Positions 3,048 to 51,105 of a stretch of DNA of 64,000 nucleotides are shown in pieces (the first letter of the stretch is position 1; each line of letters opens with the position of its first letter). Source of the stretch: Bacteroidota bacterium (lineage in GTDB: Bacteria > Bacteroidota > Bacteroidia > UBA4408). The translations under genes and the position numbers were made by a program. The stretch lies in the NCBI GenBank assembly GCA_963169745.1, contig CAUJCU010000019.1, positions 62,001 through 126,000 of the forward strand, read 5' to 3'. The notes under the pieces were generated by a model. It saw only the letters and a list, made by a program, of their open reading frames with translations, made no database searches and was not told where the DNA came from.

Positions 3048-3348
3048 ATAAGATAATATATAAATAATGTGTCTATTTCATTAAATGAATACATAATAAA
3101 TCCATTGCCCTTCTTTATTTCTCAAACAGGTGTAACCTTATTTCACCCTTGTGAGTGTATAGTTATTTTAGCAGAGTAAAAATTTATTTTACAATGAACT
3201 TAAAGTAAATGGTATTTTTAATGGAATATTTAATACTTGCAACTTTACGTTTTAAAAATAAAAATCCGTTTATTTAGTATTGAACTTCGGGTAGGAAATA
3301 GAGGTGTCATCAACCGCTATAGGCTCCTCAAAAGCAGAAATTATGGGC

Positions 3349-3381
3349 AAAAAAAACAGGTCGCCATTTTGTGACGACCTG
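3349..3381 (-). terminator. Rho-independent terminator of the T9SS gene
   Basis: Read on the minus strand, CAGGTCG pairs perfectly with CGACCTG across an 11-base loop and is followed by an eight-T tract. It lies 30 bases past the stop codon of the T9SS protein gene ending at 3411. Confidence 0.85.
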
Positions 3382-3410
3382 CCCGGAATGAGATTAATAA
3401 AAAAGAATAA

Positions 3411-4448
3411 TTAATGACTCACAATAAAATTACGACTTAATACTTTGTTTCCGTTGGTAATTCGGGTGTGGTAAGTGCCATTTTTGAGAGCAGAAATATC
3501 AATATCGTGCATTAGAGGATATGTGTTTTTTTGAGCGTTTTCATACTGATAAACAACCTGCCCCATAGTGTTGAAAATAGTGATATTTAAAGCACCTGCT
3601 TCAGGTGTTTCAAGTGCTATTTTAAGATTGTTTGTAGCAGGATTGGGATATACTGAAAAACCATCTATTAAATTAAAATCATTAATACCGCTAGGAACAG
3701 TAGTAGTGAAGCCTGATGAATAACCGGTTTGTGTAGTAACATTTCCCATAAAATCTATAGTAGAAACAGTTGTACTAATAGAGAGCAATTCCATTTGATA
3801 AAAAGGATGCAACCAAGAGTATATTTCGGAAGTTTCGGTTGTTGGGATAGTAAAACCTGCATATAAAGATGTTCCTACAGAGTTTCTTTGAATTTTTACA
3901 CGTAAAACATTGGTATATGTTCCCGATGGTGTTTTTAAAGTCCCTGAGCCATCAGCTGTTACAGTAACAAGATTGTGACTGTTTCCGGTTAAACCTTGGG
4001 CAGGTACATCAAATTCATACACCGAGCTGTCGCTAAAAGTATTTCCCATGGCAAAAGGAAATTGAAGATAGGTTTCAGGGTTACTGTATGTCAGTTTCAT
4101 ATCGGGTGTTTCAGAACCCAACACTTCAAATGAAGTGGCATTGGCTTTTAAATAGCTATAAGCCGTAGTTCCGGTATTGGTAGCTAATGTTGCTCCCGGA
4201 AAGTCTGCTACAAAGGTTGTTCCGGCCGGATCAACATAATTGGTAGTAGTGGTGGGCATGGAATCAGGTAGGTTGCTGAAATCCCAAGTAACACCGCTGC
4301 CAGATGCCCCCGGATTAACTTGCATGGTGTCGTTAACAGTAGATAAGCTGGTGCCTATCGATGGAATGATACTATTAGTTATAATTTGCCCTTTTGATAC
4401 GGCAATCATACATCCAAAGCTTAAAAAAGAGAGAGTAATTTTTTTCAT
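3411..4448 (-). CDS. Secreted protein with T9SS type A sorting domain
   Basis: Exported protein of 345 residues, predicted to pass the inner membrane by Sec and the outer membrane by the type IX secretion system. The start was placed at 4448, where MKKITLSFLSFGCMIAVSKG forms a normal signal peptide; an upstream in-frame ATG would add 15 polar residues ahead of it. The body is Thr/Ser/Gly-rich beta-sheet sequence without a recognisable enzymatic motif. The last roughly 75 residues form the classic sorting domain: YPNPATNNL, then a beta-rich stretch with FNTMGQVVY, then LKNGTYHTRI and a basic end. It has its own terminator and is probably monocistronic. Function of the passenger is unknown. Confidence 0.85.
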   Translation of the reverse strand: MKKITLSFLSFGCMIAVSKGQIITNSIIPSIGTSLSTVNDTMQVNPGASGSGVTWDFSNLPDSMPTTTTNYVDPAGTTFVADFPGATLATNTGTTAYSYLKANATSFEVLGSETPDMKLTYSNPETYLQFPFAMGNTFSDSSVYEFDVPAQGLTGNSHNLVTVTADGSGTLKTPSGTYTNVLRVKIQRNSVGTSLYAGFTIPTTETSEIYSWLHPFYQMELLSISTTVSTIDFMGNVTTQTGYSSGFTTTVPSGINDFNLIDGFSVYPNPATNNLKIALETPEAGALNITIFNTMGQVVYQYENAQKNTYPLMHDIDISALKNGTYHTRITNGNKVLSRNFIVSH

Positions 4449-10087: not shown

Positions 10088-10274
10088 AGTTTAAATGGAA
10101 TATAAATTCAAAATTCAATATTATGGATTTAAAGTTACTTATTCTCAATAAATTTTTTAATAGTTTTGAACCCCCATAATTTACTGCTTTGCTCTATTTT
10201 TAACAATCACAATGGTGGAGTTGCATACTTTGAGTTGACACAAAAGTTAATATTAACTGCGCTATCTTTAATAA

Positions 10275-10535
10275 ATGAAAAGAATAAAAAGTCTTTACAG
10301 TTTGGAGTATAAATTACAAGCTATAGAATTAACTAAACAAAGTAAGGAAACTCTAAGAAACGGGACTCGAGGCAGATATTTAGGCCAATCCAAAACAAAA
10401 GATTCGGTTATAAGTAAACCCAAAAATAAAAAAGAGGAAGAAAATATCAGTATAAAAAAGGAACTGTATGAAATAAAATTAGAGCGTGATACATTAAAAA
10501 AGGCACTTGACATCTTCGCCAAGAGCGACAGGTGA
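10275..10535 (+). pseudogene. IS3-type transposase OrfA remnant
   Basis: The 86-residue reading frame keeps the two ends of an IS3-family OrfA: an N-terminal start similar to YSLEYKLQAIEL, and the C-terminal leucine-zipper segment with KLERDTLKKALDIFAK. The helix-turn-helix that should lie between them is replaced by an unrelated basic stretch, so the DNA-binding region has been deleted or scrambled. Its stop overlaps the following OrfB-like frame by four bases, which is the usual IS3 arrangement allowing -1 frameshifting. I treat it as an inactive relic. No terminal inverted repeats could be assigned. Confidence 0.75.
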
Positions 10536-46116: not shown

Positions 46117-46189
46117 CCGTAAAAGCGAAGCTATGCTTCGTTTTCTTTTAATTGAGCAAGTTTTACTTGCTCAATATGAAACTAGAGTT
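46117..46189 (+). repeat. Dispersed repeat module A, copy 1
   Basis: Begins CCGTAAAAGCGAAGC and contains two perfect hairpins: CGAAGC/GCTTCG with a three-base loop, and TTGAGCAAG/CTTGCTCAA around TTTTA. Related copies lie at 48439 and 50516, with a truncated copy at 47800. It marks the left edge of the accessory block. Confidence 0.8.
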
Positions 46190-46617
46190 ACTTCTTTTGG
46201 GAGGACACAAAAGATACTATTATTTGTGCTAACATTAACAAATAAAAAGTACAAACAATCAATTCAATTTCTAAATTTCGGAAATTGCTAAGGTAAAACA
46301 GTAATACAAAGCAAACAATTTAGGATATACCGACTGCATTTGACAAAAATTATTCATTGTGTTTATAAGCAACTAAAAACAAGAAAAATCAGTTTGTAAA
46401 TCTTCACGTTTTAAAAACACAAGAAAGAGATATAAACAATAGATTGCAGACATACAAGTTTCTAACAAGATAAACAGATAACGAAATTCTTGAAACAGTT
46501 TGGCGTAAATGGGCGATAGAAATGATTTCAAATGTTTTGAATGGAAAAATATAGTCTATAAAAAAACAGTAAAAGCAGCCCATTTTTCGGTATTAGGTCT
46601 AATTATACGGTGAAAAA
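46190..46617. other. Intergenic region before the Fic gene
   Basis: About 430 bases with no intact reading frame. Some stretches look faintly coding but are broken by many stops, and I can assign nothing. It ends at the palindrome upstream of the Fic gene. Confidence 0.4.
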
Positions 46618-46655
46618 ATAAATTATTCACCGCAAATTTGCGGTGAATAATTTAT
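46618..46655. promoter_or_regulatory. 38-bp perfect palindrome, probable operator of the Fic gene
   Basis: Nineteen-base arms (core CGCAAATTTGCG, flanks ATAAATTATTCAC and its complement) with no mismatch and no spacer. It contains a TTTG (46637-46640) and its last base is the first base of the -7 box, so a bound dimer would block RNA polymerase. The Fic protein's own C-terminal winged-helix-like domain is an obvious candidate ligand. Confidence 0.75.
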
Positions 46656-46662
46656 ACATTTG
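46655..46662 (+). promoter_or_regulatory. -7 promoter element of the Fic gene
   Basis: TACATTTG matches TAnnTTTG exactly, 21 bases before the ATG at 46684. The TTTG within the palindrome is 14 bases upstream, a little closer than usual for a -33 element. Confidence 0.6.
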
Positions 46663-46683
46663 CCGCATCATAGTTTTTGTGTA

Positions 46684-47790
46684 ATGGCAAAATACATTTA
46701 CGAACATAAAAATTGGACGAACTTTTTGTGGCAAGACAAAGTCATAAATGCTGTATTTGGCGAAGTAAAACTAATGCAGGGCAAAATCATTGGACAAATG
46801 AATGCTTTGGGTCTTTCTGCCAAAGAAGAAGCCACACTTACGGCTCTTACCTTAGACGTTGTAAAATCAAGCGAAATTGAAGGCGAATTGCTCAACTACG
46901 ACCAAGTGCGTTCTTCCATTGCAAGGCGTTTGGGGATTAACACCGCAGGACTTGTTCCAAGCAGTCGCCACATTGAAGGCGTGGTAGAAATGATGCTCGA
47001 TGCGACTCAACGCTACACTTTTCCTTTAAGTGAAAAACGGTTGTTTGGTTGGCATGCAGCACTTTTTCCCACAGGGCACAGCGGACCTTATGAAATAGAA
47101 GTTGGTAAATACCGTACAGGTAAAATGCAGATAGTTTCGGGTGCAATAGGCAAAGAGAAAATACACTATGAAGCAGTAAAGCCAAAGTTAGTAAAGGCCG
47201 AAATGGACAAGTTTCTGGATTGGTTCAATAATGACAATCAACTTGACCCTGTAATAAAAGCCGCTATTGCTCACTTTTGGTTTATTATTATTCACCCATT
47301 TGATGACGGAAACGGACGAATTGGACGGGCTATAACCGATATGTTGCTTGCCCGTGCCGAAAGTAGTGGCGAACGTTTTTACAGTATGTCAAGCCAAATT
47401 TTGGTAGAACGCAAACGCTACTACGAAGTATTACAAAAAGTGCAACACAGCACAGGCGACATTACAGAATGGCTTGAATGGTTTTTACATTGTCTGAAAA
47501 AAGCAATGCTTGCCACCGAAAACACTACGCAACGCATTTTACGCAAAGCCGAATTTTGGAAACTGTACGAAAACACAACAATCAATGAACGCCAACGCAT
47601 CATTCTGAATATGTTGTTTGACGGATTTGACGGAAAACTACAATCATCAAAATTGGCAAAAATTACCAAAGTTTCAACAGACACGGCATTGCGTGACATA
47701 AAGGACTTAATAGAGAAAGGCATCTTACAAGAAACAGGAGAAGGCGGTCGAAATACTAATTATGAACTTGCGGACTTTACACTCAACTAA
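46684..47790 (+). CDS. Class II Fic-domain protein (DUF4172-Fic-HTH)
   Basis: Predicted AMP- or nucleotide-transferring Fic protein of 368 residues. The N-terminal DUF4172-like domain holds the inhibitory helix motif SSEIEGE (62-68), matching [S/T]xxxE[G/N], which classes it as a class II Fic protein held off by its own Glu. The catalytic loop HPFDDGNGR (204-212) is complete, so the enzyme should be competent. A C-terminal winged-helix-like region (KLAKITKVSTDTALRDIKDLIEKG) follows. The start at 46684 is set by the -7 box. Base composition looks richer in G+C than the neighbours. Flanked by A and A/B repeats, with no partner toxin or antitoxin gene. Confidence 0.93.
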   Translation: MAKYIYEHKNWTNFLWQDKVINAVFGEVKLMQGKIIGQMNALGLSAKEEATLTALTLDVVKSSEIEGELLNYDQVRSSIARRLGINTAGLVPSSRHIEGVVEMMLDATQRYTFPLSEKRLFGWHAALFPTGHSGPYEIEVGKYRTGKMQIVSGAIGKEKIHYEAVKPKLVKAEMDKFLDWFNNDNQLDPVIKAAIAHFWFIIIHPFDDGNGRIGRAITDMLLARAESSGERFYSMSSQILVERKRYYEVLQKVQHSTGDITEWLEWFLHCLKKAMLATENTTQRILRKAEFWKLYENTTINERQRIILNMLFDGFDGKLQSSKLAKITKVSTDTALRDIKDLIEKGILQETGEGGRNTNYELADFTLN

Positions 47791-47799
47791 AAAAAATAT

Positions 47800-47816
47800 C
47801 GTAAAAGCGAAGCTGT
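47800..47816 (+). repeat. Dispersed repeat module A, truncated copy 2
   Basis: Only the first 17 bases of module A (CGTAAAAGCGAAGCTGT) remain, fused directly to module B, 10 bases after the Fic stop codon. Confidence 0.65.
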
Positions 47817-48012
47817 GCTATGAAGCCAAGCGCTAACTATAATAAAAAACACGAATCACAGCTTCGTGTTTACTGAGTGCCTTACATCAACTCGGAAAAA
47901 AGTGTGAAAAGAATGCAAAAGCAAACCACTTAATTTATACTGAATAATGAAAAATTTGGGATTGTATCTAATTGATATACTGGAGTTGTTTTTTTTACAA
48001 CAGTCAGAATTT
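47817..48012 (+). repeat. Dispersed repeat module B, copy 1
   Basis: From GCTATGAAGCC to CAGTCAGAATTT, closely similar over nearly its whole length to 50593-50800. It contains a hairpin AACACGAATC/GCTTCGTGTT (one mismatch) with a three-base loop, and shared blocks GTGAAAAGAATGCAAAAGC and CTAATTGATATAC. Confidence 0.8.
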
Positions 48013-48082
48013 AAAAAACGCAAGGCGATAGAAAATAAATCGACAGAATTCCCGTTCTAATCAATAATAAAAGCTGAAGAAT

Positions 48083-48412
48083 ATGAAAAGTGTAAAATTT
48101 AAAAGTGCTATATTGGGACTTGTTGTTACTGCTGCCTTGACAAATTGTACGACTACACGAGTTGCAACTTTAGTCAAGTCAGAAAATGAAACAATTGAGT
48201 TATACACGACAAAATTACCAGATAGAAATTATGTAGAAATTGGCTACATACAAACAGATGGTGGTATTTTTCATACTCCACAAAAATTGCTTGACGGACT
48301 GAAAAAGAAAGCATATGAATTGCAAGCTGATGCAGTAACTAATATTAAGTATGACTTTCAGGCTTGGTATCCCTTTGTTTCAGGGACAGCAATAAAATAT
48401 AAGGACAAATAA
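48083..48412 (+). CDS. Small lipoprotein, YbjQ-like fold suspected
   Basis: A 109-residue predicted lipoprotein with a hydrophobic leader and lipobox LTNC (Cys22). The mature part reads as a single alpha/beta unit: YVEIGYIQTDGG, then the helix KLLDGLKKKAYELQADAV, then NIKYDFQAWYPFVSGTAIKY. The stretch AYELQADAVTNIKYD resembles the central helix-strand of YbjQ/RcsF-like heavy-metal-binding folds, but that is a pattern resemblance only. It sits between repeat module B (ending 48012) and module A copy 3 (from 48439), so it looks like a cassette. No promoter element is seen. Confidence 0.65.
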   Translation: MKSVKFKSAILGLVVTAALTNCTTTRVATLVKSENETIELYTTKLPDRNYVEIGYIQTDGGIFHTPQKLLDGLKKKAYELQADAVTNIKYDFQAWYPFVSGTAIKYKDK

Positions 48413-48438
48413 TTCTGGCACACAATTTACAAAAAATA

Positions 48439-48510
48439 CCGTAAAAGCGTAGCTGCGCTTCGTTTTCTTTTAATTGAACAAGTTTTACTTGATCAATATG
48501 AAGCTGGAGT
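48439..48510 (+). repeat. Dispersed repeat module A, copy 3
   Basis: Begins CCGTAAAAGCG and holds the same two hairpins as copy 1 with a few changes (TTGAACAAG/CTTGATCAA, one mismatch, around TTTTA). It starts 26 bases after the small lipoprotein stop codon. Confidence 0.8.
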
Positions 48511-48796
48511 CACGAAGAAATGCAGCAGCATAAGACAAACAAACCAAATGTTTGGCATTGCTTATTTGGGCACATTCCAATTTTGCAAACGTAATCTGCC
48601 AAGGCAAGAAAAAGTGCAAAGTATCAAAATTTCCTACACATTTATCACATCTAAAAAACAAGTTAAAAGATGAATATAAGCCTCCTTAGATTATACATAA
48701 AGATAAATTATTTTGCTTTTTAAACTGCTTTTTCGTTTCTTTACTCATTCATTTAATGAAACACCATCAATTAAACTTTTAACTTAAAAGTAAAAG
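48511..48796. other. Intergenic region before the broken T9SS gene
   Basis: Mostly AT-rich sequence; I see no promoter element, RNA or intact reading frame here. Confidence 0.4.
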
Positions 48797-50381
48797 ATGA
48801 AAGTATAATTACTCATCGGATTTATGACATTGGCTTGCTGGGCAACAGCACAACCTTGCAGCCCGTCAACAAGCCAATCTTTTTTAGACACGAACAACGT
48901 AAGAGCGCTCGTTTTGGGTGGTGGTGATATGTGGTTGGATCCAACAGCGGCTTTGAGAGGTTATGAGGTTCCAAAAGGGTCCGGTCACCATGCTCTGTTG
49001 GTCGGAAGTATTTGGCTGGGAGGCATTGATGCAGGAGGAAACATACATATAGCAGCACAAACGTACAGACAAACTGGCAATGATTATTGGCCTGGACCAA
49101 TTGATACAAACGGAACAACCAAAAGCGCAGACTGCGACTTGTATGACAGACACTGGAAGGTTTCTAAAACTCAAATCCAAGCACACATTGCAAATCCTGC
49201 AAATCCACCTCTTGCCATTACTGAATGGCCCGCAAAAGGAAACACCATTGGTTCGCAGGTTATAAACCGTAATATGGCGCCATTTGTTGATATAAACAAC
49301 AATGGAATTTATGAACCTTTGAATGGTGATTATCCCAAAATAAACGGAGACCAGGCTATATGGTGGATTTGTAATGATGTTGGAAATCTGCATACTGAAA
49401 CCGGTGCAAGGGCTTTAGGCGTTGAGGTTCAGGTAATGGCTTACTCTTTTGCCACAAATGATGTGTTGAATAATACCACGTTTTATGACTATAACATCAC
49501 CAATAAAAGCGATACTTTGTATCACAATTTTTATATCGGATTATGGTGTGACGATGATTTGGGTGGTTATGGTGACGATTATATTGGTTTTTGACTCAAT
49601 TCGTAACGCGGCTATTTATTATAACGCTGATGACGATGATACAATGTAAGGCAGCAACATTCCCGTTGTTGCACAAGCGGGAATTAGAGTACCTAAAGAA
49701 AATAATGTCGATGTAAATATGAAGTATAGCGGTTACTATAAGAATGATGCTACAGCACAAGGTAACCCTATTAGCAGTACACATTTTTACAATTACCTGA
49801 CGGGCTTATGGAAAGATAGTACCCAATGGAGTTTTAGTTATGTATTTCCGGGTTCTCCTTGCGATAGTCCCCAACTAAGTATGGTGTATCCTGTTCAGTT
49901 ACCTTTCCAAGACTATAGAGCTATCCAATCCTTTGGGGCAATGACACTTGCGCCTAATGAATGTAAGGACATGACAATCGCTGTTATAACAACTTTCAAC
50001 AGTGTATATCCCAATCCATGCTTTGATAACATTCAGATATCTATTGATTCGGTAAAATTATTGCACAATAGCTTGACTACCTCTGTTTTGAGCTGTCATA
50101 ACAACACATTAGGTGTGGTAAATATTGAATCGGATAAAAGTTTGCGTTTGTTTCCAAACCCCATTAATGGAGAACTGATTATTGAAAGCATAGAAGTGAA
50201 AATGAAATTACTTGTAATTCAAAACCTGTTAGGTGAAACCATTTTGCAACAGCCCATAATGCAAAAAACAAACAAATTAAACCTTGATGTTTCGCAATTG
50301 CCAAGTGGTATTTACTTTATCCGTGCAGAGTTGGTGGATGGGAAGATTGTTAGTGGGAAGGTGGTGAAAATTAAGCCATAA
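48797..50381 (+). pseudogene. Broken T9SS-secreted protein gene
   Basis: Reads as one secreted protein interrupted by at least three lesions. The start MKV is followed by TAA (48806-48808) inside the signal peptide, whose remainder (LLIGFMTLACWATAQ) is still recognisable in the same frame. A five-T run (49588-49592) shifts the frame, ending the first long frame at TGA 49592-49594, and the protein continues in the next frame as DSIRNAAIYYNADDDD. TAA (49647-49649) then interrupts it, after which the coding resumes with GSNIPVVAQAGIRVP to the T9SS tail (LFPNPINGELIIES ... LPSGIYFIRAEL). The two long open parts are 48824-49594 and 49719-50381. The passenger looks like a metal- or calcium-binding surface protein (DINNNGIYEPLNGDYP) with unknown activity. 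Confidence 0.8.
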
Positions 50382-50515
50382 AAAGAAGAGAATTACAGGG
50401 TAAGCTGCTGGTATTGGAATAATGTATTTTAGACTTTGTGTTCTCAACAACAGAAATGATATTAGTAATTTTTTACATTTATTGAGTAACAGACAAGCTT
50501 CAAAACATAAAGCCA

Positions 50516-50584
50516 CCGTAAAACGAAGCTGTCCATCGATTTTCTTTACTTGAGCAAGTTTTACTTGCGAATTTTGAAACTAAA
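50516..50584 (+). repeat. Dispersed repeat module A, copy 4
   Basis: Starts CCGTAAAACGAAGC and carries TTGAGCAAG-TTTTA-CTTGCGAA; it is more diverged than copies 1 and 3. It lies 135 bases after the T9SS pseudogene stop and just before module B copy 2. Confidence 0.75.
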
Positions 50585-50592
50585 CTTGCTGC

Positions 50593-50800
50593 GCTATGAA
50601 GCCAAGTGCTAACTATAATAAAAAACACGAAGCACGGCTTCGTGTTTACATAGTGCCATACATCAACCCGGAAAAAGAAAATTGGGAATTGTGAAAAGAA
50701 TGCAAAAGCAAACCACTAAATTTAGACGGACTAATGAATAAGTGAAGATTGTAACTAATTGATATACAGGAGCTATTGTTTTTTAAGACAGTCAGAATTT
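50593..50800 (+). repeat. Dispersed repeat module B, copy 2
   Basis: Similar to 47817-48012 over nearly its whole length, with a perfect hairpin AACACGAAGC/GCTTCGTGTT around ACG. Shared blocks include GTGAAAAGAATGCAAAAGC and the end CAGTCAGAATTT. Beyond it, to 51105, the sequence is AT-rich with no gene or signal I can support. Confidence 0.8.
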
Positions 50801-51105
50801 TTAACATTGTTATTTTTTGAAACAAAATAAATGTTAAATAAGTAGAAAGAATATGGATAGAATAAAAATAAAAAGGAATCCCAATTTGTTTTTGAATAGC
50901 AAGAAGATTTCAAGATTGTGCACTGCAATTTAGAGTAAAATATATGACAAACAGATTTAAATCAAATAAGAGCAATATTTATAAAAAACTATAGATAAAT
51001 GGCAAAGAATCTATGATGAATCAAAAGTTTTGGAGCGATTATTTAATTAGTTTTGCATTCCAAATTAAATACCCTAGATACTGAAATTATTAAAACTATT
51101 ATACG

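What the first reader, a model, noticed from the sequence alone, without database searches (positions are those of the whole stretch)
46117..50800. Cassette-like array: three same-strand genes each followed by related hairpin repeats
Seen directly: four copies of repeat module A (46117, truncated 47800, 48439, 50516) and two of module B (47817, 50593) alternate with the Fic gene, a small lipoprotein gene and a T9SS gene, all on the plus strand, with the repeat beginning 10, 26 and 135 bases after each stop codon. Modules A and B each form perfect short-loop hairpins. One-gene units with 3' palindromic repeats recall integron cassettes and their attC sites, but the expected core sites (RYYYAAC/GTTRRRY) are not clear and no integrase gene is in the window. 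Either this is a diverged cassette system, or an undescribed repeat family (REP/MITE-like) that collects genes. The A/B mosaic suggests recombination between copies.
Basis: partly seen in the sequence, partly recalled or inferred. Interest (0 to 1): 0.72.

Follow-up and report, generated by a model that had tools for sequence, protein, structure and literature searches.

The report
REPIN repeats of a distant RAYT transposase
The hairpin repeats between these genes are not gene cassettes but small fossils of a transposase unit located elsewhere in the same bacterial genome, and many copies still carry the beginning or the end of that transposase gene, which hints at where such repeats come from.

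Summary
The repeats are real. Modules A and B are inverted members of one REP family (5'-GTAAA tag, short-loop hairpin, second hairpin). On one strand they form A…B pairs, that is, REPINs. A covariance model finds about 62 copies in this genome, at 15 intergenic sites, several beside core genes. One of the largest clusters surrounds a RAYT transposase gene (REP_Tyr_transpos, above the NCBIfam cut-off) on another contig. A same-genus genome without a detectable RAYT has no repeats. Of 42 A…B pairs in three genomes, 40 match the RAYT gene's leader and/or its last codons, including the window copy at 50518-50649. REPINs here are best read as internally deleted RAYT units; the same anatomy appears independently in another family of the class. 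"Module C" is the 3' end of an IS110-family transposase gene. The integron reading fails: no integron integrase, no attC core boxes, no sign of gene exchange. The Fic gene occurs without repeats in a relative, and the "T9SS gene" is broken. REP/RAYT systems of Bacteroidota (TnpAREP subclass 2.6, RAYT group 5) are known; the transposase relics inside REPINs, and a CGC…GTG hairpin foot shared by many RAYT loci of the phylum, look new but rest on sequence evidence only.

The parts
46119..46172 (+). REP A, solo copy (tag GTAAA, first and second hairpin); its B partner is missing
   Evidence: profile and covariance-model hit, E = 2.8e-10
46187..46256 (+). short repeat also present at window 10218-10288 and in L038; tentatively a left-end relic of an IS3-type element
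   Evidence: 74-83% identity over about 70 bases; an OrfA-like frame starts just after the 10218 copy; family not confirmed by a search
46684..47790 (+). Fic/DOC-family protein gene (DUF4172 + Fic), intact; bystander
   Evidence: Pfam PF13776 and PF02661; 87% identical protein in G002, a genome without the repeats
47801..47873 (+). REPIN collapsed by internal deletion: stub of A joined to B
47876..48012 (+). module C, first copy: 3' end of an IS110-family transposase gene and right end
   Evidence: 79% identity over 108 bases to the IS110 copy in L113; NF033542 match of that copy
48083..48412 (+). small lipoprotein-like gene, 109 aa; bystander
   Evidence: ORF; no relatives in 30 genomes
48441..48491 (+). 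REP A, solo copy
   Evidence: covariance-model hit, E = 2.5e-8
48824..50381 (+). T9SS-type secreted protein gene, broken (frameshift and in-frame stop); bystander
   Evidence: two ORFs; Por_Secre_tail PF18962 in the second; frames inspected
50518..50649 (+). REPIN: A (50518-50568), last codons of the RAYT gene (50568-50597), inverted B (50600-50649)
   Evidence: RAYT tail 93% over 30 bases
50652..50802 (+). module C, second copy: 3' end of an IS110-family transposase gene and right end
   Evidence: 82% identity over 130 bases to the IS110 copy in L113

Best explanation
The repeats are REPs and REPINs, small non-autonomous mobile elements served by a RAYT (a single-stranded-DNA HUH/Y1 transposase). 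The RAYT gene lies at G000:C2:485627-486154 inside a dense REP cluster. The basic unit is REP A - RAYT gene - inverted REP B, with outer ends GTAAA…TTTAC. REPINs arose by loss of the middle of that unit: A, a stretch of RAYT leader and/or the last RAYT codons, then B. Shown here: the pairing and orientation of A and B, the RAYT gene, RAYT relics inside REPINs, intergenic location, co-occurrence of RAYT and repeats in the genus, and an IS110 3' relic fused to both B copies of the window. Inferred: that the RAYT recognises the tagged hairpin in single-stranded DNA and moved the REPINs in trans, and that the deletions came before the spread. The window stretch then decayed: partners lost, IS110 relics, a broken T9SS gene. 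The genes between the repeats are bystanders.
For: A and B are inverted relatives. About 62 copies, all intergenic. RAYT inside a cluster and above the NCBIfam cut-off (91.1 against 80 bits); its family profile finds E. coli TnpArep 4er8 at 2e-7. G002, without RAYT, has 0 repeats; G001, with an 88% identical RAYT, has 37. RAYT leader in 23 and RAYT tail in 26 of 42 A…B pairs, at least one in 40; 84-102 nt tail relics at E to 1e-24. Independent case in G035: two shortened copies, upstream REP joined to the last ~25 RAYT codons and downstream REP. RAYT loci of the phylum: 47 of 52 have an inverted pair in the flanks.
Against: No filled/empty site pair was seen, so movement is inferred. The tag is GTAA, not the GT[AG]G of canonical REPs. 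The copies are clustered rather than dispersed, so part of the copy number may come from local tandem duplication. In G000 itself the base unit is not clean (a truncated A lies before the RAYT and an A follows it); the clean A-RAYT-B unit is seen in G001. Many tail relics are only about 20-30 nt, and the p values are from mononucleotide shuffles with four comparisons per pair.
Confidence: 0.85

Rival explanations
1. A diverged integron-like cassette array in which the repeats are attC-like recombination sites that move the Fic, lipoprotein and T9SS genes.
For: One-gene intervals with palindromic repeats 10-136 bases after the stop codons.
Against: No integron integrase; no attC core boxes; dense arrays without any gene inside; copies beside core genes; Fic without repeats in G002; one of the 'cassette' genes is broken.
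Confidence: 0.02
2. RAYT gene captured between pre-existing REPs: the REPs came first, a RAYT gene landed between two of them, and copies carrying bits of its ends spread later by duplication or gene conversion. REPINs would then not be deletion products of a RAYT unit.
For: REPs can be amplified without a gene; some cores in G001 (about 120 nt) continue after the leader into sequence unrelated to the RAYT.
Against: Relics of both ends, in the right order, in nine pairs (one of them the intact G001 unit); the same anatomy arose with a different REP sequence in G035.
Confidence: 0.12
3. Host-selected RNA elements: the hairpins act as terminators or mRNA-stabilising 3' ends and were kept for that, with no role for a transposase.
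For: Hairpins follow stop codons at 10, 28 and 136 bases; all sites are intergenic.
Against: Patchy within the genus (0 in G002), long tandem arrays, RAYT relics inside. Rfam gave only two matches, both far below the families' gathering scores. A secondary role is not excluded.
Confidence: 0.05
4. The A-B-C composites are non-autonomous IS110 elements that carry a REPIN in place of their transposase gene and were spread by an IS110 enzyme; the RAYT is irrelevant to these copies.
For: L037 has IS110 left-end sequence, REPIN and IS110 3' end in order; both window composites and one in L039 share the same B/IS110 junction.
Against: Explains only four of about 40 A…B pairs; no IS110 left end is detectable before the window composites.
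Confidence: 0.1

Closest known systems
TnpAREP subclass 2.6 / RAYT group 5 REPtrons of Bacteroidetes (PMC6006769)
   Same: RAYT of 175 aa with NHVH, YIHNNP, a long HuH-Y spacing (84) and an SS tail motif; flanked by hairpins without the GT[AG]G tag, with copies elsewhere in the genome
   Different: W motif is WR/WK instead of WQ; the repeats carry a GTAA tag and two hairpins, and many A…B pairs contain pieces of the RAYT gene, which I did not find described in the text read
REPINs of Pseudomonas fluorescens and E. coli (PMC3116915)
   Same: Two inverted REPs as the mobile unit, a single RAYT, tandem arrays at some sites; [quoted passage not shown]
   Different: Those are discussed without coding relics; here the RAYT leader and last codons remain inside. 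Fewer copies (about 62 REPs)
TIRtrons / TIRYT (PMC3733652)
   Same: Tyrosine transposase gene flanked by inverted repeats that also form a moderately abundant family, in dimers and clusters
   Different: Their conserved GGGGWSAS motif was not looked for here; repeats here are REP-like double hairpins with a GTAA tag
IS110-family insertion sequences (bridge/seekRNA-guided; PMC11208160, PMC11187229, PMC1525189)
   Same: The repeat after each window B is the 3' end of an IS110-family transposase gene
   Different: Known IS110 members insert into REPs (PMC1525189); in L037 a REPIN sits between IS110 remnants instead
Integron attC cassettes
   Same: Short genes with palindromic repeats downstream; both attC and REPs are read as folded single strands by their enzymes (general knowledge)
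   Different: No integrase, no core boxes, no cassette exchange

Membership tests
REP/RAYT system (REPtron), TnpAREP subclass 2.6 | RAYT gene with HuH and Y motifs in the genome | tested here: met
   NF047646 91.1 bits against cut-off 80; NHVH and YIHNNP invariant positions in the family alignment
REP/RAYT system (REPtron), TnpAREP subclass 2.6 | RAYT gene flanked by the same repeats that occur elsewhere in the genome | tested here: met
REP/RAYT system (REPtron), TnpAREP subclass 2.6 | Subclass motifs: NH[LIV]H, WQ, YIH[QN]NP, HuH-Y median 82, SS tail | tested here: inconclusive
   All but WQ (here WR/WK) agree; HuH-Y 84. No tree with reference sequences of the subclass was built
Canonical REP | 5' GT[AG]G tag at the hairpin foot | tested here: not met
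   Tag is GTAA(A) in nearly all copies; subclass 2.6 is reported to lack GT[AG]G as well (PMC6006769)
REPIN | Two inverted REPs as a unit, present in many copies | tested here: met
   42 A…B pairs in three genomes, tags outermost
REPIN | Mobility dependent on the RAYT | not testable with these tools
   Only co-occurrence in the genus
Integron cassette array | Integron integrase (TIGR02249) | tested here: not met
   Best of four tyrosine recombinases 175 bits, cut-off 265
Integron cassette array | attC core boxes RYYYAAC…GTTRRRY around each repeat | tested here: not met
   0 pairs in the region, about 1% of repeats with a box; no attC covariance model was available
Integron cassette array | Exchange of the genes between repeats among strains | not tested
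   No second genome of the species was at hand; Fic occurs without repeats in G002
IS110 family (module C) | IS110-type transposase frame ending in the repeat | tested here: inconclusive
   The broken gene in L113 matches NF033542 at E = 7e-31 but below the curated cut-off (107.6 against 140); the window copies are 3' relics of it

The most novel reading that the evidence does not exclude
In these Bacteroidota the A-RAYT-B unit is, or recently was, a complete transposon and the REPINs are its deletion derivatives. That would be a direct fossil record of how REPINs arise, a step so far proposed for an ancestral IS200-like element (PMC3116915). RAYT loci across the phylum would share hairpins with an oriented CGC…GTG stem foot as the recognition signature of this RAYT class.
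Probability: 0.4. Interest if true: 0.6.

Novelty: new variant of a known kind. Interest (0 to 1): 0.43.

Why it matters
The origin of REPs and REPINs, common repeats of bacterial genomes, is usually inferred, because their cores carry no trace of a parent. Here many cores still contain the start or end of the RAYT gene, in two genomes of different families with different REP sequences. That makes internal deletion of a RAYT unit a concrete, testable origin. It also suggests a sequence definition for the REPs of a RAYT class whose repeats were described only as 'atypical'.

Tried and rejected
Integron/attC: rejected. Structured RNA: Rfam gave only two sub-threshold matches. Module C as a promoter or leader shared by paralogous genes: considered because it sits upstream of genes in several places, dropped when an IS110 transposase frame was found to end in it. 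IS110 left end upstream of the window composites: not detectable above shuffles. A second Y1_Tnp at C17:86643-86980 is broken and has no A/B repeat in the list near it. Two failed calls were my own errors in coordinates or structure length, and one script failed on a wrong start motif and was rerun. The RAYT structure was not predicted, since sequence evidence sufficed.

Full report
Observation. A: 46119-46172, 48441-48491, 50518-50568 and a stub at 47801. B: 47824-47873 and 50600-50649. The window is G000:C19:62001-126000 of a 3.0 Mb genome in 24 contigs. The RAYT relatives found in named genomes are nearly all Bacteroidota.

One repeat family, not two. A profile built from A finds B on the opposite strand (E about 1e-8). 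Written 5' to 3' from the tag, A is GTAAAAGCGAAGC-TGT-GCTTCGCTTT… and B is GTAAACGCGAAGC-TGT-GCTTCGTGTTT…, each followed by a second small hairpin. Across 35 copies the first hairpin pairs in 93.7% of cells against 34-53% when slid, and one pair exchanges A-T for C-G in 16 copies; those 16 largely follow the A/B split, so they are not 16 independent events. A and B alternate on one strand with tags outermost, which is the REPIN arrangement.

Copy number and location. A covariance model finds 63 hits, about 62 distinct, in this genome, all in the clusters already mapped. The scan scored at most 150 candidates, so this is close to but possibly below the true number. All 15 sites examined are intergenic, apart from one overlapping 92-codon ORF that is probably spurious. 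Neighbours recognised by eye from their N-terminal sequence include PNPase, leucyl-tRNA synthetase and an RpoD-type sigma factor; these names were not confirmed by a family search. Tandem arrays without any gene inside occur at C2:474125-475304 and C9:48371-49182.

The RAYT. A Y1 transposase gene lies inside the cluster at C2:485627-486154. It exceeds the NCBIfam cut-off for REP-associated tyrosine transposase, and its family profile finds the E. coli TnpArep structure. Length, HuH-Y distance, YIHNNP and the SS tail motif fit TnpAREP subclass 2.6 / RAYT group 5, reported from Bacteroidetes with 'atypical' flanking structures lacking GT[AG]G (PMC6006769); the W motif differs (WR/WK). Congeners: G001 has an 88% identical RAYT and 37 REP hits; G003 has a broken 63% relative and 8; G002 has no RAYT match and 0. 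Of nine more distant genomes searched, several with other RAYTs, only two had a single weak hit each (G004, G007), as expected if each RAYT has its own repeats.

RAYT relics inside REPINs. In G001 the clean unit is A - leader - RAYT - B. In 42 A…B pairs from G000, G001 and G003 the core matches the RAYT leader in 23, the RAYT 3' codons in 26, both in 9; 40 have at least one, including the intact G001 unit itself. The test used mononucleotide shuffles at p <= 0.01 with four comparisons per pair, so one or two matches may be chance. The longest tail relics are 84-102 nt at 79-83% identity (E to 1e-24). The window REPIN 50518-50649 has 30 nt of tail at 93%. In G035, another family of the class with different REP sequences, two shortened copies lie about 0.6 and 1.2 kb beyond the RAYT; each is the upstream REP joined to the last ~25 codons and the downstream REP, 84-97% identical. 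Internal deletion explains both cases. Capture of a RAYT gene between REPs, followed by spreading of its ends, remains possible.

Phylum-wide pattern. Of 52 RAYT loci from named genomes, 47 have an inverted pair in the flanks scoring above the 99% shuffled level (mononucleotide shuffles, so low-complexity matches such as that of L205 can pass). In 32 of 52 the hairpin foot reads CGC-stem-loop-stem-GTG in the REP orientation; the shuffled mean is 0.1 and the opposite orientation gives 8. A common tag is GCTNNCGC. Type B here keeps CGC…GTG behind a GTAAA tag. I noticed this pattern in the same loci on which I counted it, so it needs an independent set.

IS110 relics. The sequence after each window B is the 3' end of an IS110-family transposase gene. 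Two window copies and one in L039 share the same junction. L037 has IS110 left-end sequence, REPIN and IS110 3' end in order. How the composite spread is open.

Cassette hypothesis. No integron integrase, no attC boxes. Fic has an 87% identical homolog in repeat-free G002, where the core proteins compared are mostly 49-62% identical (one reaches 82%), which suggests transfer of Fic by other means. The lipoprotein has no relatives in 30 genomes. The T9SS gene is broken.

Conclusion. A known kind of system, with the first interpretation wrong on integrons and right on REP-like repeats, and an unusually legible origin. Mobility itself is inferred, not shown.

Noticed in passing
window 46620-46653: Perfect 34-base palindrome AAATTATTCACCGCAAATTTGCGGTGAATAATTT about 30 bases upstream of the Fic start; the DNA match to the Fic locus of G002 begins just before it (46603), so it may be the gene's operator.
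   Followed up: no
L037:7273-7669 (G000:C10:194272-194668): IS110 left-end sequence, then a REPIN, then an IS110 transposase 3' end: an IS110 remnant whose transposase gene is replaced by a REPIN.
   Followed up: partly
L148-L226, flanks of RAYT genes in named Bacteroidota genomes: Flanking hairpins share an oriented CGC…GTG stem foot (G·T pair) in 32 of 52 loci, usually after a GCTNNCGC tag.
   Followed up: partly
L259:1519-2037, 2662-2908 and 3210-3476 (genome G035): A RAYT gene followed by two internally deleted copies of its own unit, in a genome of another family.
   Followed up: yes
window 48824-50381: T9SS-sorted secreted protein gene broken by a frameshift and an in-frame stop.
   Followed up: partly
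window 10218-10288, window 46187-46256, L038:7285-7353: A 70-base repeat at three places; the first copy precedes an OrfA-like frame of IS3 type, so the others may be relics of the same element.
   Followed up: no
G000:C17:86643-86980 (L112): A second, broken Y1 transposase gene, followed about 280 bases later by another copy of the IS110 right-end sequence.
   Followed up: no
window 46684-47790: The Fic protein is 87% identical to one in congener G002, above most core proteins compared between the two genomes, which suggests recent horizontal transfer unrelated to the repeats.
   Followed up: partly
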